DNA of 54,354 nucleotides, taken from the IMG/VR virus record IMGVR_UViG_3300037796_000233, positions 1-54,354 of that record. One strand, 5' to 3'. Each line of letters opens with the position of its first letter. Within the stretch, counting starts at the first letter, position 1. The DNA is from a virus. Below, in pieces: positions 1,141 to 43,339 of this stretch. Both the position numbers and the translations under genes were made by a program. The notes below the pieces were generated by a model that searched no databases, had not been told where the DNA came from, and saw nothing but the letters and a program-made list of their open reading frames with translations.

Positions 1141-1738
1141 ATGAAACTATTATCTTTGGATATGAAATATAGTCCGGTTTTTCTCCTTTTGCCGAAAACC
1201 GGAATTCAAGCCGCCTTGCCGTATTTGGTGGGATATCGCCCAGCCTTATATAGTCCCCATCTGCATCGAATCCTCCACCAATAGAAACAAAAGCGGTTTG
1301 GTTATCGTCCACTATTTCTTCGATGCCTGAAAGTCCGTCGCCATCTACTCCTGATGATCTTACTTGGATCCATTTTCCGGTAACGATTTCTTGACCGAGT
1401 TCTTTTGATTGGCCGGTAAAAAATCCGTTTCCGCAAGCCGCAGTAAGTTTGATATTGGTAAGTATAACGCCGTTGTCTGGTTGTCTCGATACAGACCAAA
1501 GGAAAATCTCGGCCGCAATTTCAGAGCCATCAGAGGGAACAACCTTCATAATTCCATTAAGTTCTTGGCCCAGTTCATTTTTCCAAATCAAATCAACATC
1601 GTATTTGAGCGCACCAAAACTATCAGATAAAACGAGAGTATTTTGCCGATGCGCCCTGAAAACGTCTCCAAGATTTAATCGGCCAAGATCGACCGAAATG
1701 TCCTCAATATCGACCTGTTGAAAAAGTAATATAGTCAT
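1124..1738 (-). CDS. Tail-associated structural protein, function unknown (204 aa)
   Basis: The start ATG overlaps the upstream stop as ATGA, and the 3' end overlaps the exonuclease gene, so translation is probably coupled. The protein is beta-rich with alternating hydrophobic residues, Gly/Asp-rich turns such as GGGFDADGDY, and no signal peptide. Placement directly after a tail-fibre-like gene suggests a virion or virion-assembly protein, but I do not recognise the family. Confidence 0.7.
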   Translation of the reverse strand: MTILLFQQVDIEDISVDLGRLNLGDVFRAHRQNTLVLSDSFGALKYDVDLIWKNELGQELNGIMKVVPSDGSEIAAEIFLWSVSRQPDNGVILTNIKLTAACGNGFFTGQSKELGQEIVTGKWIQVRSSGVDGDGLSGIEEIVDDNQTAFVSIGGGFDADGDYIRLGDIPPNTARRLEFRFSAKGEKPDYISYPKIIVSYETRY

Positions 1739-2244
1739 GACGGAATCCCGGTTTCAAGAGAGCACCAGACCTCTAAATCACCGCCAATATCGACATTATG
1801 CGGCTCAGCAAAACGAGCAACCGCATAAAGAATTCCCTCCCCTACTATGGTGCCAAGGTCAGAAGTCGAAATCAAACCGGCACCGTATATTGTCGCTGCT
1901 TCCGTAAAGGCAAAAACGGCGGGATTATCCGTATTGGTCAAAATAAGTTCCGGTGAAGATGGTTTGTTCCAAGCCGGTCGCTGGGAATTAGAAAGCCCTA
2001 AAACCTCCGTATATTTCAAGAACATTTCATCATAAAAATCCTCGAAATCCGGCACAACATCGTTACCAAAAAGGAAAATGTACCAACCGGACAAAGGTGT
2101 TAACCCGTAAAAGTTTGTATTGATTGTATAAATACAACCTTCTCTGGTTACCAAATTTGGGTTCCGATTTACGGTCCAAAGTTCTTTCCCGTTTTCTGAA
2201 TATCTTGCTGACCAAACCGTTTTAGGGACAAATATCTTTTCCAT
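1735..2244 (-). CDS. Putative tail-tip or fibre-associated structural protein (169 aa)
   Basis: The ATG at 2244 is chosen because GAGGT lies at SD distance; an in-frame TTG 12 bases upstream lacks one. The sequence has the layout of a widespread phage structural family: an N-terminal VWSARYSENGKELWTVNRNPN segment, then a GWYIFLF strand, RPAW in the middle and a TIYGAGLIST segment near the C-terminus. Members sit in tail or fibre gene clusters. The precise position in the virion is not known. It follows the glycosyltransferase-like genes and leads into the unknown gene at 1124-1738. Confidence 0.65.
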   Translation of the reverse strand: MEKIFVPKTVWSARYSENGKELWTVNRNPNLVTREGCIYTINTNFYGLTPLSGWYIFLFGNDVVPDFEDFYDEMFLKYTEVLGLSNSQRPAWNKPSSPELILTNTDNPAVFAFTEAATIYGAGLISTSDLGTIVGEGILYAVARFAEPHNVDIGGDLEVWCSLETGIPS

Positions 2245-2245
2245 A

Positions 2246-2974
2246 TTAAACCTCAAATCTGCTTCTATCGGAAAAAAGCGAAAAAAGTTTGGCTTTTAAG
2301 ACCGCCCCTAAACCATTATCGTCATGATTCAAAAAAAGGGCTTTATCTAAATCCGATTTCAAAACCGGCTTGTCATTGGAATAAAAACCGGCTTTGTGAT
2401 GAGCGATATTAAAAACCGCCTGCGGCGCATAAACTTCGTTAACATAAGCTGTGCGAGCAAGCCCGGCCCCGGATTCTATGAATGGATACTTTTCAAAAAC
2501 CCGGTTCAGCTTGCGTGATTCGTAGTAGTATGGCGTGTGGGTTTCCCCGTTGAGTATCGTTTTTCCGTTAGACCGTAAAGCATGTGCCGTTCTCCATAAT
2601 TTCCGCCCCCAATTGTTCCTTTTGGGGTTTTTTACTGTCGAAAGATCGCCTAAGCAATAAGGGGTTTTTACTTGACTATAATCGATTGGTGTTAAAAGAT
2701 AAATATCGTCATTCGACCAGATAAAACTTTCCAAGTTTTTTATTGCCCAACGAAATTTTTCGCCGTGAGTTTGTTCTGGATTCTTTCCCTTATCGTCAAA
2801 ACGAACATGAAAGACATTGTCTATCCAATCAGGAAGATATCCGCCCATTATAAAAACCCTTACATCTTCGTCAAAATCGGCAATGAAATTTTTCTCCCAC
2901 GACCGAAGGACAAGCCGGATTTCATCGCCCCATTTTGACTCCATTAAAGGGATAACGATATTAATTGGCTTCAA
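2246..2974 (-). CDS. Stealth-like or GT-A-fold transferase (242 aa)
   Basis: The likely start is TTG 2974 with AAAGGA upstream. An N-terminal Rossmann-like strand (INIVIPLMESKWGDEIRLVL) and a central WSNDDIYLL motif resemble nucleotide-sugar or polysaccharide phosphotransferases of the Stealth type and related GT-A enzymes, where the ND-D acidic cluster binds metal or substrate. It overlaps or abuts the next two transferase genes upstream, forming a three-gene glycan cassette. Its substrate cannot be deduced. Assignment rests on motif shape, so a search for remote homology should be made before calling it an active enzyme. Confidence 0.6.
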   Translation of the reverse strand: MKPINIVIPLMESKWGDEIRLVLRSWEKNFIADFDEDVRVFIMGGYLPDWIDNVFHVRFDDKGKNPEQTHGEKFRWAIKNLESFIWSNDDIYLLTPIDYSQVKTPYCLGDLSTVKNPKRNNWGRKLWRTAHALRSNGKTILNGETHTPYYYESRKLNRVFEKYPFIESGAGLARTAYVNEVYAPQAVFNIAHHKAGFYSNDKPVLKSDLDKALFLNHDDNGLGAVLKAKLFSLFSDRSRFEV

Positions 2975-3600
2975 TTTATAGTCCTTTCTTTAAGTTTTCG
3001 GTTGATTTCTTCCGCCCGATCTCCGAATTTGGATTGCCAAAACCCTTTTTCCGCCCGATTAAGGTTCACAAACAGGGGATCTTTTCCGCACCTCATATCG
3101 TATTTCCTTGAAAGAACATATGGAAAATAAAGAAAATTCGACTCAATTGCTTTCATGAAAGCCCATTGGTCTTCTCTGATCTTTCCTGAGGCAATAAACT
3201 CCTCCATCCACTCGATATAAAGGGAGGTTTTAACCACGAGACGTTGTGTGGAAGATTGCGCCAATGGGCGATTCTTTTCCATTTTCCCGGTTATCGTTCC
3301 GTCATCCCTTACAAATTGGAAAAGAATGGCATCATAGTCCATAAAATTATTCAAATCCGGTAAAGGATTCAACACTTCATCGTCACTATCCAAAAAGAAA
3401 AGCCAGGGCGTTGTAACTTTTCTTGCGGCCTTAAGTCGATAAGTTCCGATATTTGTGTTTAACCAATCAACTCCTTTGTTATAGCTAACGAATAGAGGAT
3501 ATTGATTCAAATAATTCATCACGCCCTTTATCGTATTTTGAGAAAGAGAATGATGAGCCGCCATAACCGTTACTATAGTCAAAAGTTCATATTTTTTCAA
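2971..3600 (-). CDS. Family 2-like glycosyltransferase (GT-A fold, 209 aa)
   Basis: It starts with TTG 3600 overlapping the stop of the upstream gene, and the stop overlaps the downstream start, so the cassette is tightly coupled. The N-terminal half has the GT-A layout: a first strand (YELLTIVTVMAA), a YNKGVDWLN segment typical of NxG/ARN positions in GT2 enzymes, and FFLDSDDE, the DxD metal-binding motif. The C-terminal half is shorter than in full GT2 enzymes. It probably transfers a sugar from a nucleotide donor. Acceptor unknown; nearby tail proteins or host surface glycan are candidates. Confidence 0.75.
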   Translation of the reverse strand: MKKYELLTIVTVMAAHHSLSQNTIKGVMNYLNQYPLFVSYNKGVDWLNTNIGTYRLKAARKVTTPWLFFLDSDDEVLNPLPDLNNFMDYDAILFQFVRDDGTITGKMEKNRPLAQSSTQRLVVKTSLYIEWMEEFIASGKIREDQWAFMKAIESNFLYFPYVLSRKYDMRCGKDPLFVNLNRAEKGFWQSKFGDRAEEINRKLKERTIN

Positions 3601-4859
3601 TATTTCCCCTTTCCTTTATTGACCCTTCTTTCTTCAAAATCGTTTACCCAAATAAACGGTCCCGAAATTGGTTCCATATTCAAAAACGGACATAGTTTTC
3701 CCCAACTATCCCCCTTTTTTATGTCCATTATCAAAAGTTTATCCATATCGTTTTTGAATGAATCCATAACGAAAGTATGATGGGCCAGAAAGGCTTTGAA
3801 GTATTTATCTTTATTGAACTGAAAAGACCCATAACAAGTTTCATGCGCTCTTTTCGATATCGCCTTGAGCTTTTGCGATCTTCTTTGTTCTGGAGGAAAA
3901 GCCTTAAAAAAGATTTCTGCTCTTTCAATCCATTCCCTTGGGTCTCTATAAGTGTAAATATATTTGGCGTTTGGAAAACGGCGCTGGAGTTCGCCCTTTA
4001 TGAAAAGTTCCGTGACGGTTATATCCGCCGAAAAATCAGACCGTTTGATCCTTTTTATCCCATGGGGATACCTTACAACCGAATAACCCAAAAGGCGCAT
4101 CGCTTCTACCAGTGATGTTTGCCCCGTTCTGGATAAACCTATTCCAAAGACCTTTTCGTTGAATTTCGTTTCTTGCCTATCTTTATCGAGACGGCTTGAA
4201 AGCCTTACGTGTTGGTGTTTTGAGTTTGATCCCCAACCTTCGTCTTTGTTCATTGTTCTCCGGCCTTCCCAAATGGTTTTTATTGGCCGGTTTTCAACTC
4301 TTAATTCATCAGAATGAGGTTCGTGAAATAAAACACCATCCGGAAATATTCTTTTTTTCTTTCCATTCTTAACCAATCGGAAATAAAGGTTCACGTCACA
4401 ATCGCAATAAGTCTTTATCTTTTCGTTGAAACCGCCTACACCCCAAAAATCTTCACTTTTCGCAAGAAATGTCCCTGGTGTTCCCGGATAAACTTTATTG
4501 CTATATCCTCGATAAAAGCCGCCGGAATTTAAAAAGCCAAAATCAATCTTTCTAAATATATCAGGGGCAAAGGTTATATCGGAATCAGTAGAAAGTAGAA
4601 ACGGTGCAGTGCAAAGCCTTGCCGCCAAGTTTCTGCTTACTGCCATGTCATATTTTTTTTCGCCGTCAACCCTTACTATTGTGAGTTTGTTAAAAAAACT
4701 TTCTGATAGTTTTTCCTTTAGGAAAGTTCCAAGATTTATTTTTGAGGACCAGTCCACCAAAACTATCTCTTTAAATCTAAAAATCTCCCAATTTTTTAGG
4801 GATTTCAAAATAAAATCTTCACGGTCCATACTTACTGCGCAGATGGAAATTTGATCCAA
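3597..4859 (-). CDS. Glycosyltransferase-sulfotransferase fusion (420 aa)
   Basis: Residues about 1-200 form a GT-A glycosyltransferase: [11 protein letters not shown] start, STDSDI (DxD at 92-94) and a galactosyltransferase-like [10 protein letters not shown]...[11 protein letters not shown] region. Residues about 235-420 form a PAPS-dependent sulfotransferase-like domain: the P-loop-like [11 protein letters not shown] (239-249) that binds the 5' phosphosulfate and YTYRDPREW (302-310) matching the 3'-phosphate-binding motif. The TTG start at 4859 is favoured over an internal ATG because the conserved first strand begins upstream of that ATG. The two activities in one chain suggest synthesis and sulfation of one glycan. 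A GC-rich hairpin (4877-4904) lies just before the SD. Confidence 0.8.
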
Positions 4860-4913: not shown

Positions 4914-6005
4914 TTAAGTCCCCGAACCCGAACCCGAACCCGAACCGGAACCCGAACCGGAACCCGAACCGGAACCCGAACCCGAACCGGAACCCGAACC
5001 CGAACCGGAACCCGAACCGGAACCGCTGGCCGAACCGGAACCCGAACCGGAACCGCTGGCCGAACCGGAACCCGAACCGGAACCGCTGGCCGAACCGGAA
5101 CCGGAACCCGAACCGGAACCCGAACCGGAACCCGAACCGGAACCGCTGGCCGAACCGGAACCGCTGGCCGAACCGGAACCCGAACCGGAACCGCTGGCCG
5201 AACCGGAACCCGAACCGGAACCGCTGGCCGAACCGGAACCCGAACCGGAACCGGAACCGGAACCCGAACCGGAACCGACTTCAAGTTCATCAATAGAATT
5301 CTGAAGATGGGTCTGAGCATCTGCAGCAGAAACAAGCGTGCGGCCATCCCCGAAAGTATCGATTGCGGATTGAACCACCGTGTCACTCTCGAAAACCGCT
5401 GGATCACGGTCAAAATCAATAGACTTTCCAGAGCAAAAATCCCTCACGCCGGATGGAATTGAAATCCCCGTCGCTGGATCGTTATCAGCATCGATACTTT
5501 GAAGAAAACGGGCAATATTTACAACCCGCTGGTCCGTAACGTCCACCGCTCCGTCCACGATGGATAGCGGTGTGACTGCATCTTCGGTCGCCATCGCCTT
5601 CGTTCCAAGCGTAACATCACCGACTTTGAAGGTGACCGTTTCACCCGGCTTGTATTTGAATTTTCCGCCGTTTTCTGTAAACCCGGAAAAGGAAAGGCTT
5701 GAAAAGGCAATTCCATCAACTGGCGAATCGACAAAAACTGCCTCTGAAATTGCCCTACGAAAAGCCGCCCCGGCCACATGGTCGTCCACACCATAAACGC
5801 CCTCGAAAGAATACAAGACCAGGATCAAATCGTCATCCGCAACCTGGGTATCGTCCAACGTAACGTCGAAAGACCCATCAACGGAAAGACTTTGGCCTTG
5901 CCCTAACAAAACCCCTCGATTTGCCGCCAAAAAAACGTCCACATTGGCGGCAGCCTCAAAGGTGTTTCCGTTTTTGTCCTTTAGGACACCATCAATCTTA
6001 ATCAT
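4914..6005 (-). CDS. Tail-region protein with lipoprotein-like beta domain and long Gly/Ser tail (363 aa)
   Basis: An N-terminal beta domain (about 1-100) is followed by a stretch (about 112-200) with [19 protein letters not shown] and [17 protein letters not shown]. This pattern is known from bacterial secreted and lipoprotein repeats, where GETVTFxxGDxxLG precedes NIARFLQxLDxDGDP. Residues about 243-362 are almost only Gly-Ser with six GSAS interruptions. There is no signal peptide or lipobox, which fits a virion protein rather than an exported one. The tail may be a flexible stalk or a glycan acceptor, since serine-rich tracts are classic O-glycosylation sites and transferase genes follow directly; that link is inference. 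Confidence 0.75.
4917..5277 (-). repeat. Tandem Gly-Ser codon repeat (about 361 bp)
   Basis: Six-base units encoding Gly-Ser (GGTTCC or GGTTCG/GGTTCGGG on the coding strand) are arranged in higher units of 18-30 bases, punctuated by GCCAGC (Ala-Ser). Both other strands also stay open across it, producing long artefactual frames. Such a repeat should vary in length by replication slippage. Confidence 0.95.
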
Positions 6006-6016
6006 TTTTCAACCTC

Positions 6017-6874
6017 CTAATTGCGAAAAGGGTAAAACGTAAGGGCACCGCCCGGTCTGAGGGCATCGCCATTCAAATATTCATACGGGAAAAGCCTCAA
6101 TTCATCTCCCGGTCTTAGGGCATCGCCCAAAGGATAAATCCTTTTGTTCACGTCTTCCGGCCCCGGATAAAGTTTGAGATCATTCCCCGGTCTTAAGGCG
6201 TCACCAACCAGGTAAACGTCTTTCTCAACGTCTTCCGGTCCCGGATAAAGCCTCAATTCATCTCCCGGTCTTAAGGTATCACCGACCAGGTATGGAACAC
6301 GGTTCACGTCTTCCGGCCCCGGATAAAGTTTGAGATCATTCCCCGGCTTTAAAGAATCCCCTATCAAATACGGAATTCTCTCAACGTCTTCCGGCCCCGG
6401 ATAAAGTTTGAGATCATTCCCCGGTCTTAAGGCGTCACCAACCAGGTATGGGGTTTCGACCGCAGTCAGGGAAAAGTCGGAATAATAGATTTGTCCATCA
6501 TGTCTTACTTTTAAACGGTCTTCCGTCGTGTTATACCAAATATTTATCGATACATCGGTTGGATCTTCCGATACAAACGAAATACCAGGCCCAGTTTCCG
6601 TCCCGGCTGCCTCCAAAACAACAACCCGATCTTCTAATTGGTCAATATAAAGAGAAAGGCTGCCTATAAGTGTTTCATTTGTCTCGATCTGACTTTCAAG
6701 AGTATTGATCTGGCCCTGTAGGGAGGTATTTTCTGATTGTAAATTCCCTACTTGTACCTGAAGCAAAGATAAATCCGAAAGGATTTGCACCACTTCGTTT
6801 TCCAACAACCTTTCGGCCAAACTTTTACAGGGTTCACCGGCAACCGGATTGTCGCAAACCTTATATGGATTCAT
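6017..6874 (-). CDS. Coiled-coil tail protein with six tandem repeats (285 aa)
   Basis: Residues about 20-95 form heptad-like coiled coil (LLENEVVQILSDLSLLQ onward), suggesting a trimeric fibre shaft. Residues 98-135 contain a short beta domain (ISFVSEDPTDVSINIWYNT and LKVRHDGQIYYSDF) like those seen in phage fibre proteins. From about 139 to the end come six copies of a 24-26-residue unit, consensus YLVGDALRPGNDLKLYPGP then EDV, the last two truncated. The unit alternates polar turns and aliphatic strands and probably makes a beta-solenoid or beta-prism tip. It lies between the Gly/Ser-tailed protein and other tail-tip genes. I do not recognise the repeat from a named family. Confidence 0.75.
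   Translation of the reverse strand: MNPYKVCDNPVAGEPCKSLAERLLENEVVQILSDLSLLQVQVGNLQSENTSLQGQINTLESQIETNETLIGSLSLYIDQLEDRVVVLEAAGTETGPGISFVSEDPTDVSINIWYNTTEDRLKVRHDGQIYYSDFSLTAVETPYLVGDALRPGNDLKLYPGPEDVERIPYLIGDSLKPGNDLKLYPGPEDVNRVPYLVGDTLRPGDELRLYPGPEDVEKDVYLVGDALRPGNDLKLYPGPEDVNKRIYPLGDALRPGDELRLFPYEYLNGDALRPGGALTFYPFRN
6035..6460 (-). repeat. Six coding repeats of about 78 bp
   Basis: Within the coiled-coil tail gene, blocks of about 75-78 bases repeat with high identity (for example GGAAGACGT and CCGGGGAATGATCTCAAAC recur). The first four are complete and the last two are shortened. High nucleotide identity implies recent duplication or ongoing recombination between units. Confidence 0.9.
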
Positions 6875-6875: not shown

Positions 6876-8000
6876 TTAATTTCTCACTCCGAAATAAAGA
6901 TTGACTGCCCCGCCGCCTTCTATTCCAGTAACGTGTAAAGAAACCTTGTCCGCCCCCAAAAGATCCCAACCAAGCATGGGTGAAGGATATTTTGAAGCGG
7001 ATTTAAAGGGAAAATCAACAGAAGATGCAGACCTTTTTGTTTCCAAAACACCTTTAATTTCTTGTATTTCCCGTTTTTCCCAATCCATATTAGAAAACCA
7101 AGGTTTATTGTAAGTTGGATCGTCTCCATCTTCCCAAGAAGGAATCTTGATATATTCATATTGATCCGAAGTAAGCCTTGGCCCCGGTAAAAGTTGGATC
7201 ACTATGTCCCTTCCCTCCGGCCAATCATCAGAAAGGGTAAAGGCCTGATTTATTATTTCTGAACAATCGGGGAAATAATAGGTGCCATATTTACTCCAAC
7301 TGGACGGGTCAAACTCAACGGAATCGCTCCACAATGAATCATCCCAATGATCTTCTCCGGTGAGGGAAAATGGGTCTTTTGTTGGATCTATTAAAAAACG
7401 CAAATAAATTTTGCTTAGTGGTTCATCGGAGCCAATGTCGGAATAATCGAGTTTAAACCGCAATTTAGCATCGGAAACAATTGCCCCTTTAGAAAAGGGC
7501 ATTGGATACGAAAAGGACATTCTATACTCATCCCCGGCGTTAGACCAGCCAACCTCACCCGAATAAGTTGGATTGATGGTGTTATAACTTATTGACCCGT
7601 AATAATCATATTTATACCAGGCCGCATAATAACTTCCGTCACGCAACTTTAAATCATAATCGGTTTCTTTTTCCAAAAGTGCATCAAGGACGTTTTTCAC
7701 AATTGGCGTAATGATTATTGCGCCGCCCGGCGAATTAAAAACAGGTTGAACGACCAATTTTGACTTATCGTGCGCGTTTAACCAGAGCCAAGGCAATTCG
7801 CCGTCTAAATCGAAAGAATCTGCTGCGGCTATCGTTAGAAAATTCGTCCTTTGATCTTGAAAAACGACCGGCTCAGAAGAAATATCAACGGGTTGAATAA
7901 GGGTTTCTGTGCCATCAATAGAATACCGGCTTGGCCGCATAAGATAACTTTTTCCACTCAATGCGTCTTTTATAACGGCATATCGGATTTCTTCAGACAT
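6876..8000 (-). CDS. Tail structural protein, function unknown (374 aa)
   Basis: A beta-rich protein with many aromatic residues (Trp, Tyr) and Asp/Gly turns and no coiled coil. A jelly-roll-like segment (about 130-260) includes AKLRFKLDY and YFPDCSEII. The C-terminus ends in GGGAVNLYFGVRN. It lies two genes after the hub-like gene and before the coiled-coil repeat protein, which suits a tail tip or carbohydrate-contacting protein. The family is not recognised. Confidence 0.7.
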   Translation of the reverse strand: MSEEIRYAVIKDALSGKSYLMRPSRYSIDGTETLIQPVDISSEPVVFQDQRTNFLTIAAADSFDLDGELPWLWLNAHDKSKLVVQPVFNSPGGAIIITPIVKNVLDALLEKETDYDLKLRDGSYYAAWYKYDYYGSISYNTINPTYSGEVGWSNAGDEYRMSFSYPMPFSKGAIVSDAKLRFKLDYSDIGSDEPLSKIYLRFLIDPTKDPFSLTGEDHWDDSLWSDSVEFDPSSWSKYGTYYFPDCSEIINQAFTLSDDWPEGRDIVIQLLPGPRLTSDQYEYIKIPSWEDGDDPTYNKPWFSNMDWEKREIQEIKGVLETKRSASSVDFPFKSASKYPSPMLGWDLLGADKVSLHVTGIEGGGAVNLYFGVRN

Positions 8001-8011: not shown

Positions 8012-10165
8012 TTAAATCTCAAATATTCTCATGCTTTTATGATGTTCGTAATTGAAACCAAAACCGGATGAATCCCAAATCATATCCCCGAAATATTGAG
8101 GAAGGTTTCCTGCGTAATCTCTTCTTATTGTATCCATATATTGTTTATAATATAGGGTTTGAGAACCACCGCCGGAATACCAGGTAAATGACCACCAAGA
8201 TTTAGATAACCAAACTGGACCCGTAAGGGAATATTGAACAACGCCCCCAAAATCTACATCTGAATATATTTCGAGTTTAACGCCCTCGGAAAGTAAAAAA
8301 CCGTTAAGATTAATCCTCCAATAGGAAGGATTCATCCAACTAAGGTAATTGACCAAATCTCCAAAGCAAGTATCCTCCCTTATGTCTCTTGCTTCGTATG
8401 GTGGTTTAAAAATAAAATCATGCGCACCAGCCTGTTCATCTTCACCGCCTACTCCCGGAACCGTTGACTCTCCGCAAGGTAATTTAAAGACCATTTGAGA
8501 TACGCCAGGTTCATCGTAATAACTATTAGGCCACCTCGCAAAATGAATTATTTCTCCTTCTTCTATAATTCTTTGCGGTATATCTCCTGTATATATTTCA
8601 GAAAAATCTTCATTGTTATTTCCGTTAAATGCTTGTGGGTGCCAATGAAGAACTGATTCTTGCGAATAAGGGGCTTTTTCTCCCATTATCCAGCCTGTAG
8701 ATAAGTGCGCGATTTTAAATGTAAATTTCGGAATATAGATATCAAATTTGTTTATTTGAAAACGGCTTTCCGGTTTCCACCATTCTTCTGATTCAAGTTT
8801 TTTATATCCCGAAAGGACATGGTCACGCCCCTCGACAGTTTTTGTTTGTGCTTCCCCTAATCCGACCCCTATGTTCATCCAATATCCGTCATAATCTATC
8901 GGCATGCTCAAATAAAGTTTCCAAGGGAATTCGCTATCTTTTTCTCGGTCATATTCTAATTTTTCGTATAGTATTTCATTTTGATTTGAATCGTAAATAG
9001 TTATAGTTGGATCATCGTCGGGTGTTATGTTTCCTTTGTCTATTATCACGCCAGTTGACGCCTCGCCCCAATTAAGTTTAAACTCTAAAGGACAAGGTCT
9101 TGGATTACTCCAAAAGCCTACGTTCAAAACATCTTCATAAGCGCAATTCCTAAACATTATGACCACAACGTCTCCCGGTTTAAATCCAAAACCGTCACAC
9201 GTCATGTATTGGGTCATTACTTCAATCTCGGCCAAGTTCAAAATATCGATCTTTAATTTATCACGCCCCAAAACCTCTTTCACTATCCCGGTTGTAAAAA
9301 GTGGGCATTCTTCCTGCCAACGCTCATTTCTAAGGCTGGAAAAGAAGTATTCATAGGCCAAACTATACGGATAACCTTTTGCGATCATATCGGTGGAAGT
9401 AAGCCAAATCTTATTCGGTGAATATTTATAAACATAATCCTCTTCACCTTCACCCCGTTCCCCGTCGTCTTCCTTTTCCCGGATAACCCCAAAGGTATTA
9501 CAATAAATTGTAAATGTATCATCAACCGTTCCGCCTTTTGCACCGGATAAGGAAGTACAACCTTGATTCTTTAAGGCAGAAAGGCCCATTTCATCATATT
9601 CAGCATGAAGAATATTCGCCCGATGTCCCGGTGATTCCATCCATAGGTCAAAAACCTCCTTATCTGTCCTGGCCCAACCTACGTTTTCACCTGCTTCGTA
9701 ATCGGTTGCCCCGTCGATATATCCGCTGGCCTCTATCCGGTCAAAAACAGAAGGATATGGGCCTCCGGCCTCATCGTGTCCCGCATAACAATTATGAGCC
9801 ATAAATCCGGCGTGTAATCTTGCCGCCGTCGTTAGCTTGGGATTCATCTTAAGTCTTTGAAGTCCTTCGGTGGTCCTGGCTTTATTTATCATGCCAAGAA
9901 TATTTCCGCCCGAAGCACCTTCACTTGATGGTTCAGTTCCTTCCCTTGTGGCTGCCAATTCATCATTAGGTAAAACTCGGATATTTCCCCAAGTTTTCAA
10001 TGAGTTTGGGTTTAAATTCGATATTTCTACAATTGGAACCACATACTCCTTTTTAAGTGGATCGAGAGTGGCGCATTGCGCAATGATCCGATCCCCGAAA
10101 CCCGGAATTGATATCTTGTATATATTTTGACCGTTATCGGCCCAAACTATCTTTGCCTCAGCCAC
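8012..10165 (-). CDS. CAP/SCP-domain tail-tip protein (717 aa)
   Basis: The start is GTG 10165, overlapping the upstream stop. Residues 1-75 look like a small structural N-terminal domain. Residues about 88-235 are a CAP (SCP/PR-1) domain: NILGMINKARTTEGL, H130 in CYAGHDE, AGENVGW (158-164) and SPGHRANIL (178-186), which supply the expected His/Glu/His cleft residues (H130, E160, H181). CAP proteins bind lipids, metals or cell-wall material and a few are peptidases; activity here is unknown. The remaining about 480 residues are beta-rich and aromatic. Position between the hub-like protein and the fibre proteins suggests a virion component that contacts the cell envelope. Confidence 0.82.
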   Translation of the reverse strand: MAEAKIVWADNGQNIYKISIPGFGDRIIAQCATLDPLKKEYVVPIVEISNLNPNSLKTWGNIRVLPNDELAATREGTEPSSEGASGGNILGMINKARTTEGLQRLKMNPKLTTAARLHAGFMAHNCYAGHDEAGGPYPSVFDRIEASGYIDGATDYEAGENVGWARTDKEVFDLWMESPGHRANILHAEYDEMGLSALKNQGCTSLSGAKGGTVDDTFTIYCNTFGVIREKEDDGERGEGEEDYVYKYSPNKIWLTSTDMIAKGYPYSLAYEYFFSSLRNERWQEECPLFTTGIVKEVLGRDKLKIDILNLAEIEVMTQYMTCDGFGFKPGDVVVIMFRNCAYEDVLNVGFWSNPRPCPLEFKLNWGEASTGVIIDKGNITPDDDPTITIYDSNQNEILYEKLEYDREKDSEFPWKLYLSMPIDYDGYWMNIGVGLGEAQTKTVEGRDHVLSGYKKLESEEWWKPESRFQINKFDIYIPKFTFKIAHLSTGWIMGEKAPYSQESVLHWHPQAFNGNNNEDFSEIYTGDIPQRIIEEGEIIHFARWPNSYYDEPGVSQMVFKLPCGESTVPGVGGEDEQAGAHDFIFKPPYEARDIREDTCFGDLVNYLSWMNPSYWRINLNGFLLSEGVKLEIYSDVDFGGVVQYSLTGPVWLSKSWWSFTWYSGGGSQTLYYKQYMDTIRRDYAGNLPQYFGDMIWDSSGFGFNYEHHKSMRIFEI

Positions 10166-22509: not shown

Positions 22510-23505
22510 TTAGTCCAAAAGTTCTTTTGTATCAACATCCCGTAATTTCCGCGCTGGGTTCCCTGTCCAAATTTCGCCCTCTGGAATATCTTTCGTGACT
22601 ACCGAACCGGCCCCAATAACGGCGTTTTTCCCTATGGAAACCCCCGGACAAACACAACAACAGCTACCTATTCGGGCAAAATCCCCTACTTTAACCGGCT
22701 GGGGAACAAATTTTTCAACCCGCAAATACGAAAGGATTTTATCATTGGTAATCGTGACCCTTGGGCCTACATAAACGCCCTTTCCAATTTCGGTGTAAGC
22801 ACCGATATTTGAAAACTGAAATACTTTCGTTTGTGAACCAATTGAAACACCTTCTCCAATGAAACAATGATCCCTTATTTCAGACGTTTCATCGATAAAT
22901 ACGTTGGGTCTTATTTTGATATAATATCCAAGAAAAACGGTTGGAGAAATTAAAGCCGTTTTATGGATTATGTTTCCCTTGTTATCGAGATGAACCCCCG
23001 GCTCAATAAGGGTTTCGTTCATTATCTTTACCGGATTGCCTATGTAAATGCCCGGTTTTTCCAATGACCTTGGAACAAACGAGTTTGCCCCAATCGAAAT
23101 ATCCGGACCAATCTCCACGCCTGGCCCGATAATTGCCCCGGCCCCAATCTTAACCCGGTCCCCGATCTTGGCCGGTGAATGGTTCCCTTTAAAATCCGAA
23201 TGAAGGATGACCGCCTTTGGGCCTATGAAAACGTCTTCACCTATAATGGTATCTGGGGAAATAATTGCCCCGGCCTTAACTATTGATCTTGTACCGATCT
23301 TGCAGTTTGAGCCGGTTCGCACAAAACTTCCGATTGTCGCATTGTCACCAATCTCGGTTCCCCGTACTAACTTCACGTAATCACCAACCGTCGTTTTGTC
23401 GCCAATAACAACGTCCCTTTCGATGATTACAAACTCGCCAAGTTTAACGTCTCCGACCGCTTGAAACTGACTTCCCCGATAAACCACGTTTGATCCGCTA
23501 ATCAT
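22510..23505 (-). CDS. Left-handed beta-helix acyltransferase (hexapeptide repeat, 331 aa)
   Basis: The ATG at 23505 has AAGGAGA eight bases upstream; a start at 23529 would lie deeper in the upstream gene. Nearly the whole protein is made of hexapeptide repeats ([LIV]-G-x4), such as AIIGPGVEIGPDISIGANS, in two blocks (about 25-165 and 190-310). The second ends with GVSIGKNAVIGAGSVVTKDI and GNPARKL, the signature of WbbJ/maltose-O-acetyltransferase-type enzymes. These form trimers and acetylate or acylate sugars using acyl-CoA. The duplication of the block is unusual. It overlaps the 907-residue glycosyltransferase gene and probably modifies the same glycan. Confidence 0.85.
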   Translation of the reverse strand: MISGSNVVYRGSQFQAVGDVKLGEFVIIERDVVIGDKTTVGDYVKLVRGTEIGDNATIGSFVRTGSNCKIGTRSIVKAGAIISPDTIIGEDVFIGPKAVILHSDFKGNHSPAKIGDRVKIGAGAIIGPGVEIGPDISIGANSFVPRSLEKPGIYIGNPVKIMNETLIEPGVHLDNKGNIIHKTALISPTVFLGYYIKIRPNVFIDETSEIRDHCFIGEGVSIGSQTKVFQFSNIGAYTEIGKGVYVGPRVTITNDKILSYLRVEKFVPQPVKVGDFARIGSCCCVCPGVSIGKNAVIGAGSVVTKDIPEGEIWTGNPARKLRDVDTKELLD

Positions 23506-26221
23506 GACAGCGTTCTCCTTGCTGGTCATCTAATAAACCGGCTTTCGTTAGTTCCAAAACCAACCCAGGAAAGTTTAATGCCAACCAAATATGTTGATCC
23601 CTAAAATCCATAGTAAGAACTGATCCGCAAAAATTCTCTATGAAATCAATAGGGTTCAGCATATCCCAGTTGCCCTTAATACACATCGCAACCGTCTGTG
23701 GTATTTTTTTCCGAATGATCCCGGCCATGCCCATAACATCTTTTCTCATATGGCCCAGGGTTTCATCCTTCGTATTTTGATATAGGTTCCAGTGTATCTC
23801 TTCAAGGGCTTTCTTGGAAAACATTTCGCCTGAATCGAAATATCCGCCCTTGAATCTCTTTTTGATAATTGGATTGCGGTGTCGGATATCTAACATTGCG
23901 ATATCCGACCCGGCAAGAAAACCCTTACCTTTCCAAATTTCCTTTAATCCTCTTTCGATCCATCGGTCACAAAAGACATCGTCAGAACCAGCCACCATAA
24001 GGGCGTCAGGCTCCATCGTACTGGCTTCAAAAACTGCGTCCGACATCTTAGACCACAGAGGAAGGTTGGGCCGCTCTAAGAACAAATCTGCGCCACTCCC
24101 GGATGCTATCTTCCGGTTTTCTTTCTCCCCGGTAATTATCAATATTGGCTTAACGGTCTGGCGTTCCTTCAACCTTTTCGCCGTAAGGGTTGCAATCTCA
24201 TATCGACCGTGAACCGGCATAATAACCACAACCTTGGCGCTGATCTTTATCCTCGATTGCGGCGCTGAATTCGTTATCTCTTCTTGTGTAAGATTTGGAA
24301 ACCAGGTTTCGCAAAAAATTTGCCTGCTACGGACCCAGGCTGCCTTCATATCGAATTTTTTTTGGTGCCCCGTAGTAGAATGTGCCTTGTGTTCAACGCC
24401 GTGATCTAAAGCCAACGCTATACTAAAGCCCAACCTCTTCGACCTGAAGCAAAAATCGGGATCATCGAACCAACACGGTGAATATCTCTCGTCAAGAAAC
24501 CCGACCCTTTGGAAGACCTCCCAAGATGCATACATTCCGCCTATACCAACATATGAAGGTTCCTCAAGTATAGATTCCATTTTATAGGCCCAAGCCTTTG
24601 AATCCATAAACCAACCTTCAACCCCGGCGATATCACCCCCGGCCACTTTTAGCCTATGAATTGTTTCTGGCGAAATATATTGGTCATTATCCGGACAAAA
24701 AAGAAATCGACCCCTTGCCGCCGTTAAAACCTGATTGCGCCCTTCTATTGCTCCGTTGTTCTTATCGTTTCTCATAAACTTAAACAAAGGACCAAATGAA
24801 GGGAATTTTTCTTTAAGTTTATCAAATGAAAATTCGTCAGTTCCATTATCAAGTAAAACGATTTCTTCATTATATTTTTTGAAAGCTAAAATCCGTTTAA
24901 TTGCTTCAACAGTGACGTCTAATTTATTATGATATACAACGCAATAGGAAACATCCGGTTTTTCCAGCACTCTTTTAACCTTCAACGCAACCGCTTCTGG
25001 TTTTATCGCCTTGGAACAAGAGACGTTACCTTGATATCCACTTGAATTACATTTAATATTATACCAGCATGGACCGCCTGTCGGGCAATCTTCTGGCGTT
25101 ACTTGAATCACGAAACTGTTTCTGTAGTTTCTGGTCCTTATCTTCCCGTCAATATGGGTAAAAAGCCATATTGTCGGAATGTCTAAGGCAGCGGCAATGT
25201 GTGAAAGTCCCGTATCTGGACCAATAAATAAATCGCACTCACCTATAAGGGTGGTAACATTCCTCAAATCTCGTCCAAAATAAAACGAAACCTCTTCATT
25301 TTCCTCTAAATTGAACCATTTCGGTTTCTCTTTAGCAAAAACCAACAATTTATGATTTATAATTTCGACCGATGTGTGAATATCTCTTTTGTTCTCCCTT
25401 AAAATATCAATAAGGCTTTCGATTTCATACCAATCTCTTGCAGGCGCAGCGGATTCTAACGCAACCCCTATGGTCAAACCCCTTAAGGTTTCGTGCTTCG
25501 CCAAAAGTATCTCTTCTCTGGAGAGATAAAGTTTTGGCATTGGGGTTTCTTCCGGATTAAATCCCGCCGCCTTTACAAAAATCTCCGCTCTATTTAGATC
25601 GACTAATGGTTGAGTTTTTCTTTCGTAATCAATGCACTCAGTCGTTAGATCGATAGAAACATCCCAAAGAGAAGGGGCAACAATACTTACGCTAAAAGGA
25701 ACAAGTGAGTCAATAAAGGGGTTGTTTTTCGCCAAACATAAAAATTGTTTAGGGCAGGAAAAGGTTATTTTTGATTTTGGAAATCTTTTCTTGACCAATT
25801 CTATGACCGGAAAGGTCATAACGATATCACCTATCCCGCCCAAAGATCGATAGACAAGAATTTTTACAGGCTTGTCCGTGTTTCTTATTTCGCCTAAGTC
25901 TATGTGTCTTGTAGTTTCTATTTTAAAGAAATATTTTGATACAGTCTTAATTTTCGATTGAAGGAAGACAAAGGGGATGGCCCGGATTTCAACCGCATTC
26001 TGTTCTCCTGATACAACAAAAGTATCCGGCTTTACAAACCGGATATCGTAACCGCGCAAAGGTCTTCTATCGAATCGACAAAGGGTTTCTACATCCTTTT
26101 GGGAAGAAAGAAATTCAAAAAAATCTATTGTTGGCACAAGTGAAAATTCACCCGTCAGGGTTATCTTTTCCCCTTTGCTGGCAAAAGTTTTTGGGCCATC
26201 CCCTTTTAATCTTGCAAGCAT
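23498..26221 (-). CDS. Three-domain glycosyltransferase fusion (GT9 + GT2 + GT-A-like, 907 aa)
   Basis: Residues 1-115 are a domain of unknown type (LTGEFSLVPTIDFFEFLSS). Residues about 120-415 are GT-B family 9: GGIGDIV (128-134) and DLFIGPDTGLSHIAAAL (330-346), as in ADP-heptose heptosyltransferases. Residues about 424-640 are family 2: YCVVYHNKLD start, a DND at 511-513 and WFDDPDFCFRSKRLG (584-598), plausible catalytic and acceptor loops. Residues about 662-860 form a third GT-A-like unit: VVVIMPVHGRYE and AGSDDVFCD (SDD 746-748). The gene starts in a TAATG overlap with the 147-aa gene. A three-activity chain implies stepwise building of one glycan. Placement beside the capsid gene suggests virion or envelope decoration; this is inference. 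Confidence 0.85.
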   Translation of the reverse strand: MLARLKGDGPKTFASKGEKITLTGEFSLVPTIDFFEFLSSQKDVETLCRFDRRPLRGYDIRFVKPDTFVVSGEQNAVEIRAIPFVFLQSKIKTVSKYFFKIETTRHIDLGEIRNTDKPVKILVYRSLGGIGDIVMTFPVIELVKKRFPKSKITFSCPKQFLCLAKNNPFIDSLVPFSVSIVAPSLWDVSIDLTTECIDYERKTQPLVDLNRAEIFVKAAGFNPEETPMPKLYLSREEILLAKHETLRGLTIGVALESAAPARDWYEIESLIDILRENKRDIHTSVEIINHKLLVFAKEKPKWFNLEENEEVSFYFGRDLRNVTTLIGECDLFIGPDTGLSHIAAALDIPTIWLFTHIDGKIRTRNYRNSFVIQVTPEDCPTGGPCWYNIKCNSSGYQGNVSCSKAIKPEAVALKVKRVLEKPDVSYCVVYHNKLDVTVEAIKRILAFKKYNEEIVLLDNGTDEFSFDKLKEKFPSFGPLFKFMRNDKNNGAIEGRNQVLTAARGRFLFCPDNDQYISPETIHRLKVAGGDIAGVEGWFMDSKAWAYKMESILEEPSYVGIGGMYASWEVFQRVGFLDERYSPCWFDDPDFCFRSKRLGFSIALALDHGVEHKAHSTTGHQKKFDMKAAWVRSRQIFCETWFPNLTQEEITNSAPQSRIKISAKVVVIMPVHGRYEIATLTAKRLKERQTVKPILIITGEKENRKIASGSGADLFLERPNLPLWSKMSDAVFEASTMEPDALMVAGSDDVFCDRWIERGLKEIWKGKGFLAGSDIAMLDIRHRNPIIKKRFKGGYFDSGEMFSKKALEEIHWNLYQNTKDETLGHMRKDVMGMAGIIRKKIPQTVAMCIKGNWDMLNPIDFIENFCGSVLTMDFRDQHIWLALNFPGLVLELTKAGLLDDQQGERCHD

Positions 26222-29914: not shown

Positions 29915-30144
29915 TTATTCGCTTTTGGTTCGTAAATGAAAACCCCGACTTGATCCGAAAAAGGAAGGTCATGACGGACATCCCCGGAAAGAATCACATC
30001 TGGAATCCCCTTTGGGAAGGCCAAACAAGCCGCTGCCTTGTTGAATTTATGAACGCAATACGGACAAAAGCCAGCCGTTTCAAGGTCACCCGACTTCCAA
30101 GAAAATTTATCGGCCGCATTATAATCTTCTTTCTTTTTTGCCAT
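29911..30144 (-). CDS. Small cysteine-containing phage protein next to MuF (77 aa)
   Basis: A basic N-terminus is followed by CPYC (C27, C30) and C40, then FPKGIPDVILSGDVRHDLPFSDQ. The C-x-A-FP-x-GIP...H...D pattern recurs in small phage proteins encoded beside portal/MuF genes. It probably binds zinc. The role is unknown. The gene overlaps both the MuF gene and the two-helix membrane protein gene. Confidence 0.65.
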   Translation of the reverse strand: MAKKKEDYNAADKFSWKSGDLETAGFCPYCVHKFNKAAACLAFPKGIPDVILSGDVRHDLPFSDQVGVFIYEPKANK

Positions 30145-34345: not shown

Positions 34346-35713
34346 TTAATAGCCAGTGCCTGAATTGGTAGTTGTCCTGACCGGATGTTCCCTCTCAACG
34401 TAATATCCTATTGCGTCAGATAAATGGGTATATAAACCGTCAGAGGTTTTGATAATCGCCCCTGATGAATCGGATTCTACAATTTCAAAATCCTCAACCG
34501 TATGTTCCGCCGTCTCCGGATCGACCATAAACTTTATTTTGCCATTGGCCGATACAATTCTGGAATTGACGGCGTTGATTCGTGCCCTTTCTGGTGGGTT
34601 TCTCTTTCTGACCCTTATATTGAGCCGGTCCCCGAAAACCTGACCGAGTTCATATTTGATAATATCCCAATCGCTTCCTTTAATCTTTGCTGAACCTTTT
34701 GCTCCGCCAGAAGCATCACCGTAACAATAAACCTTCCCGGCGTGCTTCCGGTATTTCTCCAGCAACTTGTAACAAATTATTCTTGTATTTGAATTTTTCT
34801 TGACCCAAACCTCGTCGATAATCCCTGTACCAGAATTCCTTTGCGGCGTTGGCAATTCATCGAATTCCTGACCTACAGCGGCAACGCCCGGCGACACATT
34901 AAAATCGAACATCAACAATAAAGGTCTTTCGGGATTATATAGATGACGAAGGGCAGCGCAATTATTCTTTCGGGAAAAGGTATAATATGTGTTGCCTTGA
35001 AAATTAACGTATTCACCGTCAAGTTCTTGCCTGGCGGTTTCTTTATCCATGTCCTGTTCAAGTTCTTCAATTTCTTCAGGCGGCAATATATCCTTCGACC
35101 GCCAATGAAAAACCTCCCATGTCGGAATTTTTCCCCGTTTTAATGCTTCCAAATATCGCTTGAGGGCTTTTTCCTTTAATCGAAAATAATGATTCATGCC
35201 CTCTGGAACACCAACGAAAGACGCCCAACCCTGCCTATCGGCCAAGGCTGGGCGCACGTTCTCTTCCCAAACCCCATCTTTCATACTTCCGATCTCATCG
35301 AGCACGCACCCATCCCATGGCGTACCTTCGACCCGTTCTGGTTTGTCCATTCCCATTACGAAAAGTTGAACATTATGAACCAAAAGAATCGAAAGTTCAG
35401 ACTCAGATTTGTCCAGAATAAGGTCTTGCGGAATCATCGTCTTTAAGTCGTTCCAATAAATCCGCTTGGCCTGATCTCTCGTTGGCGCACCAATAAAATA
35501 TCTTGGGTCAGGAAACCTTGACCCCTTCAAAATCTTTTGAACAAAAAGCCTTTTCCCCTCAAGTTCCGTTTTTCCGCTTCGCCGACCGGCGTGAATCACC
35601 TTAAAACGGGCTTGGCTCTGGGCCAAACGGGCTTGAACCGGATGATACCGTAATGGGTAAAACCTTTCTTTGGACCTCTCTAATGATGCGCCCGGTTTTT
35701 TGTCTCTAAACAA
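34346..35713 (-). CDS. terL: Large terminase subunit (455 aa)
   Basis: The N-terminal ATPase has Walker A HAGRRSGKT (41-49), an adenine-motif Q in ARLAQ just before it, and Walker B CVLDEIG (136-142). The C-terminal nuclease has acidic residues D270 in LLLMFDFN, D333 in YCYGDASGG and a further Asp/His cluster near 425-440 (LSDAIGY). This is the RNase H-fold headful- or cohesive-end-cutting motor that pumps DNA into the prohead. The start is TTG 35713 with GGGGGG nearby. Length is usual. Confidence 0.93.
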   Translation of the reverse strand: MFRDKKPGASLERSKERFYPLRYHPVQARLAQSQARFKVIHAGRRSGKTELEGKRLFVQKILKGSRFPDPRYFIGAPTRDQAKRIYWNDLKTMIPQDLILDKSESELSILLVHNVQLFVMGMDKPERVEGTPWDGCVLDEIGSMKDGVWEENVRPALADRQGWASFVGVPEGMNHYFRLKEKALKRYLEALKRGKIPTWEVFHWRSKDILPPEEIEELEQDMDKETARQELDGEYVNFQGNTYYTFSRKNNCAALRHLYNPERPLLLMFDFNVSPGVAAVGQEFDELPTPQRNSGTGIIDEVWVKKNSNTRIICYKLLEKYRKHAGKVYCYGDASGGAKGSAKIKGSDWDIIKYELGQVFGDRLNIRVRKRNPPERARINAVNSRIVSANGKIKFMVDPETAEHTVEDFEIVESDSSGAIIKTSDGLYTHLSDAIGYYVEREHPVRTTTNSGTGY

Positions 35714-35769: not shown

Positions 35770-35925
35770 TTATAAGTAAAGTTCATCCCTAAGTAATTCC
35801 GGAAACATCATACGGGCAAAGGGATTTAAAAGCAAGGTATAGTAAACCATGCGATAATGCGCCACCATGAGAAAAACGACCACTGGAGACGCATACAAAG
35901 GATAGGTCATAAATGGATTGATCAT
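35770..35925 (-). CDS. Small membrane protein (51 aa)
   Basis: ATG 35925 follows GGGAGG and overlaps the stop of the GGQ gene (ATGA). One hydrophobic helix (PLYASPVVVFLMVAHYRMVYYTLLL) is followed by a charged C-terminus. It lies between GGQ and TerL genes in one operon. Possible holin, spanin component or small regulator; nothing distinguishes these. Confidence 0.6.
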   Translation of the reverse strand: MINPFMTYPLYASPVVVFLMVAHYRMVYYTLLLNPFARMMFPELLRDELYL

Positions 35926-36287
35926 GCTGCCTCCCCGTCGAAAGGTTCCCATTTCCCGGTTTCGCCCCGTTTCTCTATCTTGAGGTTTTCCAGGCTCATT
36001 TGTCTTTCAACGCGATCTTCTATGGACTCACCGGCGCAAAGTTCCGCTGATTTCCGTTTTAACCAAAGATCAAAGGCTTTTGTCTTCACCAATCGAACAA
36101 AAGCCCTCTTCTTATTCTGAAATTGGCTCTTCATCTCCCGGCTTTCCCCCACCGCCCCGGATGGACGATGAATAAGTCTAACCCCGGATTCAGTCTTGTT
36201 TTGGTGTTGTCCGCCCTTACCGCCAGCACGAAAGGTTTGGACTTCCAAGTTTTTTATTGAAACCGTAAAAAGTTTTTGCCTACGCAC
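35922..36287 (-). CDS. GGQ-domain release-factor-like protein (121 aa)
   Basis: The chosen start is GTG 36287 with GGGGG upstream; it overlaps the end of the preceding gene. Residues 17-60 are the class I release-factor catalytic domain: FRAGGKGGQHQNKTESGVRL with GGQ at 25-27, the glutamine that coordinates water at the peptidyl-transferase centre. Codon-recognition domains are absent, as in ArfB/YaeJ and PrfH-like proteins that rescue stalled ribosomes. The C-terminus has basic helices (ENLKIEKRGE) like the ArfB mRNA-entry tail. It could rescue ribosomes on cleaved mRNA or interfere with host translation. Confidence 0.8.
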   Translation of the reverse strand: MRRQKLFTVSIKNLEVQTFRAGGKGGQHQNKTESGVRLIHRPSGAVGESREMKSQFQNKKRAFVRLVKTKAFDLWLKRKSAELCAGESIEDRVERQMSLENLKIEKRGETGKWEPFDGEAA

Positions 36288-43218: not shown

Positions 43219-43236
43219 TTGTTTCTCCTTTCGGGT

Positions 43237-43251: not shown

Positions 43252-43281
43252 GGTTTCGGTTTCCCTCTGAACTTGATTACT

Positions 43282-43310: not shown

Positions 43311-43339
43311 GTCTTTTTTTGACTTTGGGGCAAAAAAAT

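What the first reader, a model, noticed from the sequence alone, without database searches (positions are those of the whole stretch)
2246..4859. Second glycan island with glycosyltransferase-sulfotransferase fusion in the tail module
The 420-aa protein joins a GT-A glycosyltransferase to a PAPS sulfotransferase-like domain ([20 protein letters not shown]). Two more transferase-like genes overlap it. A sulfated sugar made by a phage would be very unusual and could coat a tail protein or modify the host.
Basis: partly seen in the sequence, partly recalled or inferred. Interest (0 to 1): 0.85.

Follow-up and report, generated by a model that had tools for sequence, protein, structure and literature searches.

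The report
Phage cassette sugar-coating a serine-rich tail
A bacterial virus carries, right behind its tail genes, a protein ending in about 60 alternating serines and, directly after it, a block of three sugar-attaching enzymes, one fused to a sulfate-attaching enzyme; related viruses keep the same kind of serine tag next to the same kind of enzyme, which suggests that viruses decorate their own particles with sugars, here possibly sulfated ones.

Summary
The 420-aa protein (3597-4859, minus strand) ends in a Sulfotransfer_4 domain (E=1e-18; best folds are PAP-bound Cpz8 and SgdX2) and starts with a GT2-like domain (weaker, but with DxD, base Asp and HxPH). Two more transferase-like genes follow with 4-bp overlaps. 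The third (242 aa) is a compact Stealth/GNPTAB-like GT-A enzyme. A different 77-kb phage (L031) has the same order with a (Ser-Pro)n tail. In a third phage (L144) a (Ser-Gly)7 tail sits 1 bp before the Stealth-like gene. In 13 of 13 Bacteroidota-type phages the two structural proteins before it end in a Ser/Gly-rich GG(L/I/V) tag (24/26 versus 5/214 other proteins). Best reading: a virion-protein glycosylation cassette whose acceptor is the Ser-rich tail, with sulfation as a possible last step. Sulfation is unproven: the sulfotransferase is divergent and lacks two near-invariant PAPS-site residues (Q247 for Thr, R313 for Ser), and no PAPS-making gene was found. Phage sulfotransferases as such are known; the cassette, the tags and the GT-sulfotransferase fusion appear new.

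The parts
4914..6005 (-). Proposed acceptor: 363-aa distal-tail-region protein with a Ser-Gly/Ser-Ala C-terminal repeat
   Evidence: repeat composition; the L031 counterpart with (SP)n matches at phmmer E=1e-5 (a low-complexity match, so weak).
4917..5276 (-). Ser-Gly/Ser-Ala repeat, residues 244-363: 59 Ser, 53 Gly, 7 Ala, 1 Thr; 30-bp/18-bp DNA period
   Evidence: Ser codons are TCG 27, TCC 25, AGC 7.
3597..4859 (-). GT2-like/sulfotransferase fusion, 420 aa
4290..4859 (-). GT2-like half (residues 1-190): DSD 92-94, GGFNE 142-146, D155, HEPH 179-182
   Evidence: homologs S-SCSM2R gp310 and L158-L160.
3636..4154 (-). Sulfotransfer_4 half (residues 236-408): loop [12 protein letters not shown] 239-250, D279, R305, R313, W386
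2971..3600 (-). 209-aa GT2-like protein (DSDDE at 71-75)
   Evidence: 20.6 bits, sub-threshold; 35% identical homolog at the same place in L031.
2246..2974 (-). 242-aa Stealth/GNPTAB-like GT-A enzyme (phrog_7999): NDD 88-90, H146-x-P148
   Evidence: (pLDDT 90.6).
1735..2256 (-). 173-aa protein of unknown function, phrog_8123, overlaps the 242-aa gene by 11 bp; role in the cassette unknown
6876..8000 (-). 374-aa protein; its homolog lies two genes 5' of the sulfotransferase in L031 and anchors the shared order
   Evidence: (E=7e-12).
6017..6874 (-). 285-aa protein with an N-terminal coiled-coil-like stretch and 78-bp repeats, between the tail-region protein and the Ser-Gly protein

Best explanation
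The locus is a self-contained virion-glycosylation cassette. The 363-aa protein from the distal tail region carries a long, flexible Ser-Gly C-terminal tail that is the acceptor. The 242-aa Stealth-like enzyme, the component most consistently found beside Ser-tagged virion proteins in other phages, primes or modifies the serines with a sugar (or sugar-1-phosphate). The 209-aa GT2-like protein and the GT half of the fusion extend the glycan. The fused sulfotransferase half may then put sulfate from host PAPS on it, so that finished virions would carry a hydrophilic, possibly anionic glycan brush at the tail. Shown: gene order, families and fold of the ST half and of the 242-aa enzyme, and the recurrent pairing of Ser-rich C-terminal tags with the Stealth-like gene. 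Inferred: that the tags are the substrate, the order of enzymes, the sugars, and that sulfate is added.
For: (1) The Ser-Gly protein is directly 5' of the enzymes and co-oriented with them. (2) L031, a 77-kb phage contig, keeps the order tail-region protein, (SP)n-tailed protein, sulfotransferase, 209-aa GT homolog, GH130-like gene, Stealth-like gene. (3) In L144, a different phage, a 109-aa protein ending in (SG)7V sits 1 bp before the Stealth-like gene, behind the tail genes. (4) L045: a capsid-like protein ending SSSSASASASSSSAL and another ending SSSSSVPSSSSSSS, in the same contig as a sulfotransferase and a Stealth-like gene. (5) In 13 of 13 Bacteroidota-type phages/prophages the two dissimilar structural proteins before the Stealth-like gene share a Ser/Gly-rich GG(L/I/V) C-terminus: 24/26 with at least 5 S+G in the last 9 residues, against 5/214 other ORFs of the same loci. 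(6) Strict C-terminal Ser runs: 7/494 ORFs in Stealth-like loci against 0/419 other viral and 0/725 bacterial ORFs. (7) Ser codons of both families (TCN and AGY) are mixed in the tails, so they are not just a DNA microsatellite, most clearly in L031 and L045. (8) The 242-aa model (pLDDT 90.6) matches the sugar-phosphotransferases CpsY (3e-11) and GNPTAB (2e-8), backed by sequence profiles. (9) The ST half matches Cpz8 with PAP, SgdX2 and SmSULT-OR. (10) Mycobacteriophages are published to glycosylate capsid and tail-tube proteins with their own glycosyltransferases (PMC12363180).
Against: No biochemistry was found for any member of these phage families. Ser-Gly tails can be plain flexible linkers, and the Bacteroidota-type phages are related to one another, so the 13 cases are not independent; distinct lineages with long tails number about four (window, L144, L031, L045/L047). 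Several Stealth-like loci (L004, L146, L148, L024/L147/L149-L157) have no strict Ser tail nearby. At the PAPS site Q247 replaces a 98% conserved Thr and R313 a 98% conserved Ser; the branch is long (1.95). The Arg essential in CpsY (R419, PMC10668966) aligns with Ser153 in the window and with Lys in most phage members, so sugar-phosphate chemistry is doubtful. The GT half could not be modelled with confidence (pLDDT under 40 from about residue 70).
Confidence: 0.55

Rival explanations
1. The cassette glycosylates the Ser-Gly protein, but the sulfotransferase half is a degenerate, non-sulfating remnant used as a fold or binding domain, so no sulfate is made.
For: Q247 and R313 replace residues 98% conserved among 58 homologs, and the terminal branch is one of the longest in the tree. 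No PAPS-making gene was found in the window.
Against: The P-loop core G-x-G-x-x-R-T-G, R305, W310 and the motif Asp (D279) are kept; L031 itself has Asn at the R313 site and L044 Ile at the Q247 site, so both sites tolerate change; the frame is intact in a compact genome; a host can supply PAPS.
Confidence: 0.4
2. The enzymes modify a host surface glycan (LPS, capsule or teichoic-acid type) during infection, to block superinfection or change the receptor.
For: Stealth enzymes and GT2/GT9 enzymes commonly make surface polysaccharides (established knowledge); L042/L043 carry the sulfotransferase inside a larger sugar-gene island; phage seroconversion is established knowledge.
Against: None of the ORFs inspected looks like a flippase or membrane-bound O-antigen-type glucosyltransferase (not searched family by family); the genes sit among late tail genes behind a Ser-Gly-tailed protein, and the pairing recurs.
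Confidence: 0.2
3. The Ser-Gly tail is only a flexible spacer, and the distal tail module is an insertion hot spot that happens to hold sugar enzymes; there is no enzyme-acceptor link.
For: Gly-Ser runs are classic linkers; the 30-bp period suggests that the repeat grows by slippage or recombination; not every Stealth-like locus has a Ser tail.
Against: (SG)n, (SP)n, (S)n and short GSGSGG tags have Ser in common, not Gly, and sit near the same enzyme family; two different structural proteins in the same genome carry the same tag; terminase relatives without the enzymes lack C-terminal Ser runs.
Confidence: 0.2
4. The transferases hypermodify phage DNA or RNA bases (glycosylation and sulfation), as an anti-restriction measure.
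For: PMC10829341 states that glycosyltransferase- and sulfotransferase-based nucleotide modification has been reported in phages.
Against: The genes sit with late tail genes, not with replication genes; no hydroxymethyl-pyrimidine pathway gene was seen in the window; Stealth-like enzymes have no known nucleic-acid role (own knowledge).
Confidence: 0.05

Closest known systems
Mycobacteriophage virion glycosylation (Che8 gp110, Corndog gp38, Myrna; cited in PMC12363180)
   Same: Phage-encoded glycosyltransferases modify the phage's own capsid and tail proteins; from memory, the glycans lie at C-termini.
   Different: The published enzymes were not compared by sequence here; no Stealth-like enzyme, Ser-Gly repeat or sulfotransferase is reported for them in the text read. 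Fionnbharth-type mycobacteriophages do carry a phrog_7999 homolog annotated 'hypothetical'.
Stealth / GNPTAB family (M. tuberculosis CpsY, human GlcNAc-1-phosphotransferase)
   Same: Same GT-A fold, the CR2 region with its NDD motif and the H-x-P of CR3.
   Different: Much smaller (242 aa), profile match starts in CR2 (no CR1 match), essential CR3 Arg not kept in the window; acceptor unknown.
Sulfotransfer_4 enzymes (Cpz8, SgdX2, SmSULT-OR)
   Same: Same domain and fold; most of the loop motifs.
   Different: Compact viral group (18-row set holding 14 viral rows, the window and 3 bacterial rows, support 99/100); in the window fused to a GT; two PAPS-site residues changed. Other viral members are fused to SAM-methyltransferase-like domains.
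Serine-rich-repeat adhesin glycosylation loci of Gram-positive bacteria; serglycin Ser-Gly repeats; Dictyostelium/Leishmania phosphoglycosylation of Ser-rich tails (all from memory)
   Same: Ser-rich repeat acceptor; in the bacterial case the dedicated glycosyltransferases are encoded next to it.
   Different: No homology shown here; analogy only.
Phage-borne sulfotransferases of marine phages (OM43 phages, Synechococcus phage S-SRM01; Sulfotransfer_3, PMC10580990)
   Same: Sulfotransferase carried by a tailed phage; function stated to be unclear.
   Different: Different Pfam family and, as far as described, no fusion or acceptor gene.

Membership tests
Sulfotransfer_4 (PF17784) | Profile score above curated cut-off | tested here: met
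   68.3 bits against 22.8
Sulfotransfer_4 (PF17784) | Sulfotransferase fold | tested here: met
   ST half pLDDT mostly 70-91; Foldseek 9kf2 E=2.3e-8, 8y9p 2.7e-8, 4mub 7e-6
Sulfotransfer_4 (PF17784) | Phosphosulfate loop G-x-G-x-x-R-T-G-T-x-S | tested here: inconclusive
   All kept except Thr to Gln at 247; Thr in 57 of 58 homologs
Sulfotransfer_4 (PF17784) | 3'-phosphate site: Arg followed by Ser eight residues on (a mark of activity rather than of homology) | tested here: not met
   R305 kept, Ser replaced by R313; Ser in 57 of 58 homologs, Asn in L031. Homology to the family stands by profile and fold; it is activity that becomes doubtful.
Sulfotransfer_4 (PF17784) | Conserved motif Asp (presumed base) | tested here: inconclusive
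   D279 aligns; one search places the nearby 2-residue insertion otherwise and puts Thr there
Sulfotransfer_4 (PF17784) | PAPS-dependent sulfate transfer | not testable with these tools
   Needs an assay
GT2 (fusion N-terminal half) | Profile match above curated cut-off | tested here: not met
   21.5 against 23.3 bits; two-sequence profile hits PDB GT2 enzymes at 2.8e-5. Described as GT2-like only.
GT2 (fusion N-terminal half) | DxD metal motif, base Asp, C-terminal His motif | tested here: met
   DSD 92-94, D155, H179/H182, conserved with S-SCSM2R GT2
GT2 (fusion N-terminal half) | GT-A fold | tested here: inconclusive
   Model too poor for this half
Stealth (242-aa protein) | CR2 region profile | tested here: inconclusive
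   17 of 20 family members match, best 7.3e-9; the window member only 11.8 bits against 39.4
Stealth (242-aa protein) | Stealth catalytic-domain fold | tested here: met
   CpsY 3.4e-11, GNPTAB 2e-8 are the best of 350,542 chains
Stealth (242-aa protein) | CR3 Arg essential in CpsY (R419) | tested here: not met
   Position is S153 in the window (Arg one residue on), Lys in most members; R419K is inactive in CpsY (PMC10668966). Described as Stealth-like, not as a member.
Phage virion glycosylation system | Phage-encoded glycosyltransferases next to a virion protein | tested here: met
   that the 363-aa protein is in the virion is inferred from its place among the tail genes
Phage virion glycosylation system | Glycan demonstrated on the virion | not testable with these tools
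   Metagenomic record only

The most novel reading that the evidence does not exclude
Tailed phages widely use Ser-rich C-terminal tags on their own capsid and tail proteins as substrates for a compact Stealth-like enzyme that attaches sugar-1-phosphate to serine, a viral phosphoglycosylation system; in this phage the tail is elaborated into a sulfated glycan, a proteoglycan-like coat made entirely by phage genes.
Probability: 0.15. Interest if true: 0.92.

Novelty: new variant of a known kind. Interest (0 to 1): 0.72.

Why it matters
Glycosylated phage particles are documented for a few mycobacteriophages. If the tag-enzyme pairing is real, virion glycosylation can be predicted from sequence in many uncultured phages, an unknown-function phage family (phrog_7999) gains a likely role, and the Ser-rich tags become portable, testable acceptor peptides. 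A sulfated glycan would be a new kind of virion surface and would bear on how particles stick to cells and on their shielding. Phage sulfotransferases, whose function is described as unclear in the literature (PMC10580990), would get a concrete hypothesis.

Tried and rejected
Search for full-length relatives of the fusion in IMG/VR by peptide patterns: none. tblastn of both halves, of the 209-aa protein and of the L031 sulfotransferase against 50,697 phage records: only a cyanophage GT2 matched the GT half. Sulfotransfer_4 in 21 related phage records: only the window. 198 genomes of a Bacteroidota member's phylum: only ST-half matches, no fusion. First attempts at a full-length alignment put the GT homologs on the ST half; A11 was the only usable one and still left the GT half poorly modelled. 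PDB profile search of the 209-aa family: nothing. A loose definition of Ser-rich tail gave no enrichment over bacterial ORFs; the strict definition did. In one search some control loci turned out to hold remote Stealth-like genes; one search is the corrected count. Papers: no hit linking Stealth proteins and phage virions; the original mycobacteriophage glycosylation paper is not held. DNA-modification reading considered and set aside.
Full report
WHAT IS THERE. The window is a 54,354-bp IMG/VR virus record without terminal repeats and without a named host. It is a tailed phage: terminase (34346-35713), portal, capsid, tape measure and tail proteins are recognised. Its nearest terminase relatives are two siphoviruses from Manatee Spring, 47% identical. 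Below the tail genes, on the minus strand, lie in order: a 374-aa tail-region protein, a 285-aa repeat protein, a 363-aa protein, the 420-aa fusion, a 209-aa and a 242-aa transferase-like protein, then two small proteins. The three enzyme genes overlap one another by 4 bp and each has a ribosome-binding-like stretch before a TTG start, so they look co-translated.

THE FUSION. Its C-terminal half is a Sulfotransfer_4 domain (68.3 bits, cut-off 22.8). The 14-sequence viral profile finds Cpz8, SgdX2 and the schistosome SULT-OR in the PDB at 4e-20 to 5e-28, and the AlphaFold model of this half (pLDDT mostly 70-91) finds the same enzymes, with PAP-bound Cpz8 first. The N-terminal half is GT2-like: 21.5 bits against a cut-off of 23.3, a two-sequence profile that reaches a GT2 enzyme, chondroitin synthase and polypeptide GalNAc-transferase at 3e-5 to 9e-4, and the expected DSD, base Asp and H-x-P-H residues shared with a cyanophage GT2. 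Its fold could not be modelled with confidence.

IS THE SULFOTRANSFERASE LIKELY ACTIVE? Uncertain. Most of the phosphosulfate loop (G239, G241, R244, T245, G246, S249), R305, W310 and a motif Asp (D279; placement depends on the alignment) are kept. But Q247 replaces a Thr found in 57 of 58 homologs and R313 a Ser found in 57 of 58. The two exceptions (L044 Ile, L031 Asn) show that both sites tolerate change, and Arg can bind phosphate, so loss of activity does not follow. The window row has one of the longest branches in the tree (1.95). No PAPS-making gene was found among the window proteins scanned, so host PAPS would be needed.

A VIRAL SULFOTRANSFERASE GROUP. 21 IMG/VR loci carry relatives, up to 40% identical, against at most 30% for 80 bacterial loci. 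In the tree an 18-row set holding 14 viral rows, the window and 3 bacterial rows is separated with support 99/100. Other viral members stand alone or are fused to a SAM-methyltransferase-like domain, and many lie beside glycosyltransferase, nucleotide-sugar or GH130-like genes. The GT-ST fusion was seen only in the window. tblastn with the window and L031 domains found no match in 50,697 phage records; sulfotransferases of another Pfam family are published in marine phages, function unclear (PMC10580990).

THE 242-AA ENZYME. It belongs to phrog_7999, 'unknown function', with homologs in Fionnbharth-type mycobacteriophages annotated as hypothetical. From a 20-sequence alignment AlphaFold gives pLDDT 90.6. 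The best PDB matches are the Stealth sugar-phosphotransferases CpsY (3e-11) and GNPTAB (2e-8). Independent of structure, the profile finds GNPTAB at 2e-9 and 17 of 20 members match Stealth_CR2, best 7e-9. The Arg that CpsY cannot do without (R419; PMC10668966) is Lys in most phage members and Ser153 in the window, with Arg154 next to it. I therefore call it Stealth-like and leave open whether it moves a sugar or a sugar-1-phosphate.

The gene directly 5' of the fusion ends in 120 residues of Ser-Gly/Ser-Ala (59 Ser). Is the pairing meaningful? In L031, a different 77-kb phage, a coiled-coil protein ending in (Ser-Pro)n is followed by a stand-alone sulfotransferase, the 209-aa GT homolog, a GH130-like gene and the Stealth-like gene. 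In L144, whose held DNA shares no other detectable protein with the window, a 109-aa protein ending in (Ser-Gly)7Val lies 1 bp before the Stealth-like gene. In L045 a capsid-like protein and another end in Ser runs, in the same contig as a sulfotransferase and a Stealth-like gene. In 13 Bacteroidota-type phages, one of them in a bacterial genome, the two dissimilar structural proteins before the Stealth-like gene end in the same kind of tag, for example ...GSGSAGGGL and ...GSAGGGI: 24 of 26 have at least 5 Ser+Gly in the last 9 residues, against 5 of 214 other ORFs of the same loci. With a strict definition, 7 of 494 ORFs in Stealth-like loci, 0 of 419 in other viral loci and 0 of 725 in bacterial loci have a C-terminal Ser run (Fisher p=0.013 against viral ORFs alone and 2e-4 against all; related phages make these p-values optimistic). 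Ser codons of both unconnected codon families are mixed in L031 and L045 and to a lesser degree in the window, so Ser itself seems selected. The terminase relatives of the window lack both the enzymes and C-terminal Ser runs.

HOW IT MOST LIKELY WORKS. The Ser-rich tail is the acceptor; the Stealth-like enzyme, which is the shared component in all these phages, modifies the serines; the two GT2-like activities lengthen the glycan; the sulfotransferase half may cap it. Shown: the genes, the families, the folds of the 242-aa enzyme and of the ST half (as predicted models), and the recurrent tag-enzyme pairing. Inferred: substrate, order, sugars, sulfate. Published work on mycobacteriophages establishes that phages can glycosylate their own capsid and tail-tube proteins with their own enzymes (PMC12363180).

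LIMITS. The record is metagenomic, the host is unknown, the tag survey is small and partly made of related phages, several remote Stealth-like loci have no strict tag, and a loose tag definition showed no enrichment. The GT assignment of the 209-aa protein rests on 20.6 bits, a DSDDE motif and one homolog.

VERDICT. The part of its interpretation that survives best is decoration of a tail protein; the sulfate part remains open. The more general and newer observation is the pairing of Ser-rich C-terminal tags on virion proteins with a compact Stealth-like enzyme.

Noticed in passing
window 22510-26221 (-): The other glycan island: 339-aa hexapeptide-repeat protein and a 907-aa protein with GT9-like and GT2 domains, not far from the capsid gene.
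   Followed up: partly
window 30144-32792 (-): 882-aa protein next to the portal gene with a C-terminal ADP-ribosyltransferase exoenzyme-type domain (PF03496, E=8e-15), like MuF-linked ADP-ribosyltransferases of other phages.
   Followed up: no
window 8012-10165 (-): 717-aa tail-region protein carrying a CAP domain (PF00188, E=5e-14).
   Followed up: no
window 35922-36317 (-): 131-aa protein with a GGQ stretch (GGKGGQHQN); probably the RF-1-type match (PF00472, 1.5e-17), i.e. a phage release-factor-like peptidyl-tRNA hydrolase next to the terminase.
   Followed up: no
window 42193-43350 and 52693-53670 (-): Amidoligase-type enzyme (PF12224) and an ArdC-type anti-restriction protein (ArdcN plus MPTase-PolyVal).
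   Followed up: no
L036, L038, L039, L040, L041 (N-terminal) and L044 (C-terminal): Viral sulfotransferases fused to SAM-methyltransferase-like domains, so the compact viral sulfotransferase is repeatedly joined to other enzymes.
   Followed up: partly
L005-L023, L167: Two dissimilar structural proteins per genome share the C-terminal tag S/G-rich plus GG(L/I/V), directly before the Stealth-like gene.
   Followed up: yes
L161:9084-10013: Major capsid protein of mycobacteriophage Malthus, which carries a phrog_7999 homolog (gp6), ends in ...TPDAGSGS: a possible short tag of the same kind.
   Followed up: no
L158:4337-8807 and L027: Homologs of the GT half lie in a larger marine sugar island with GT25-like, radical-SAM, aminotransferase-like and amidinotransferase genes.
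   Followed up: no
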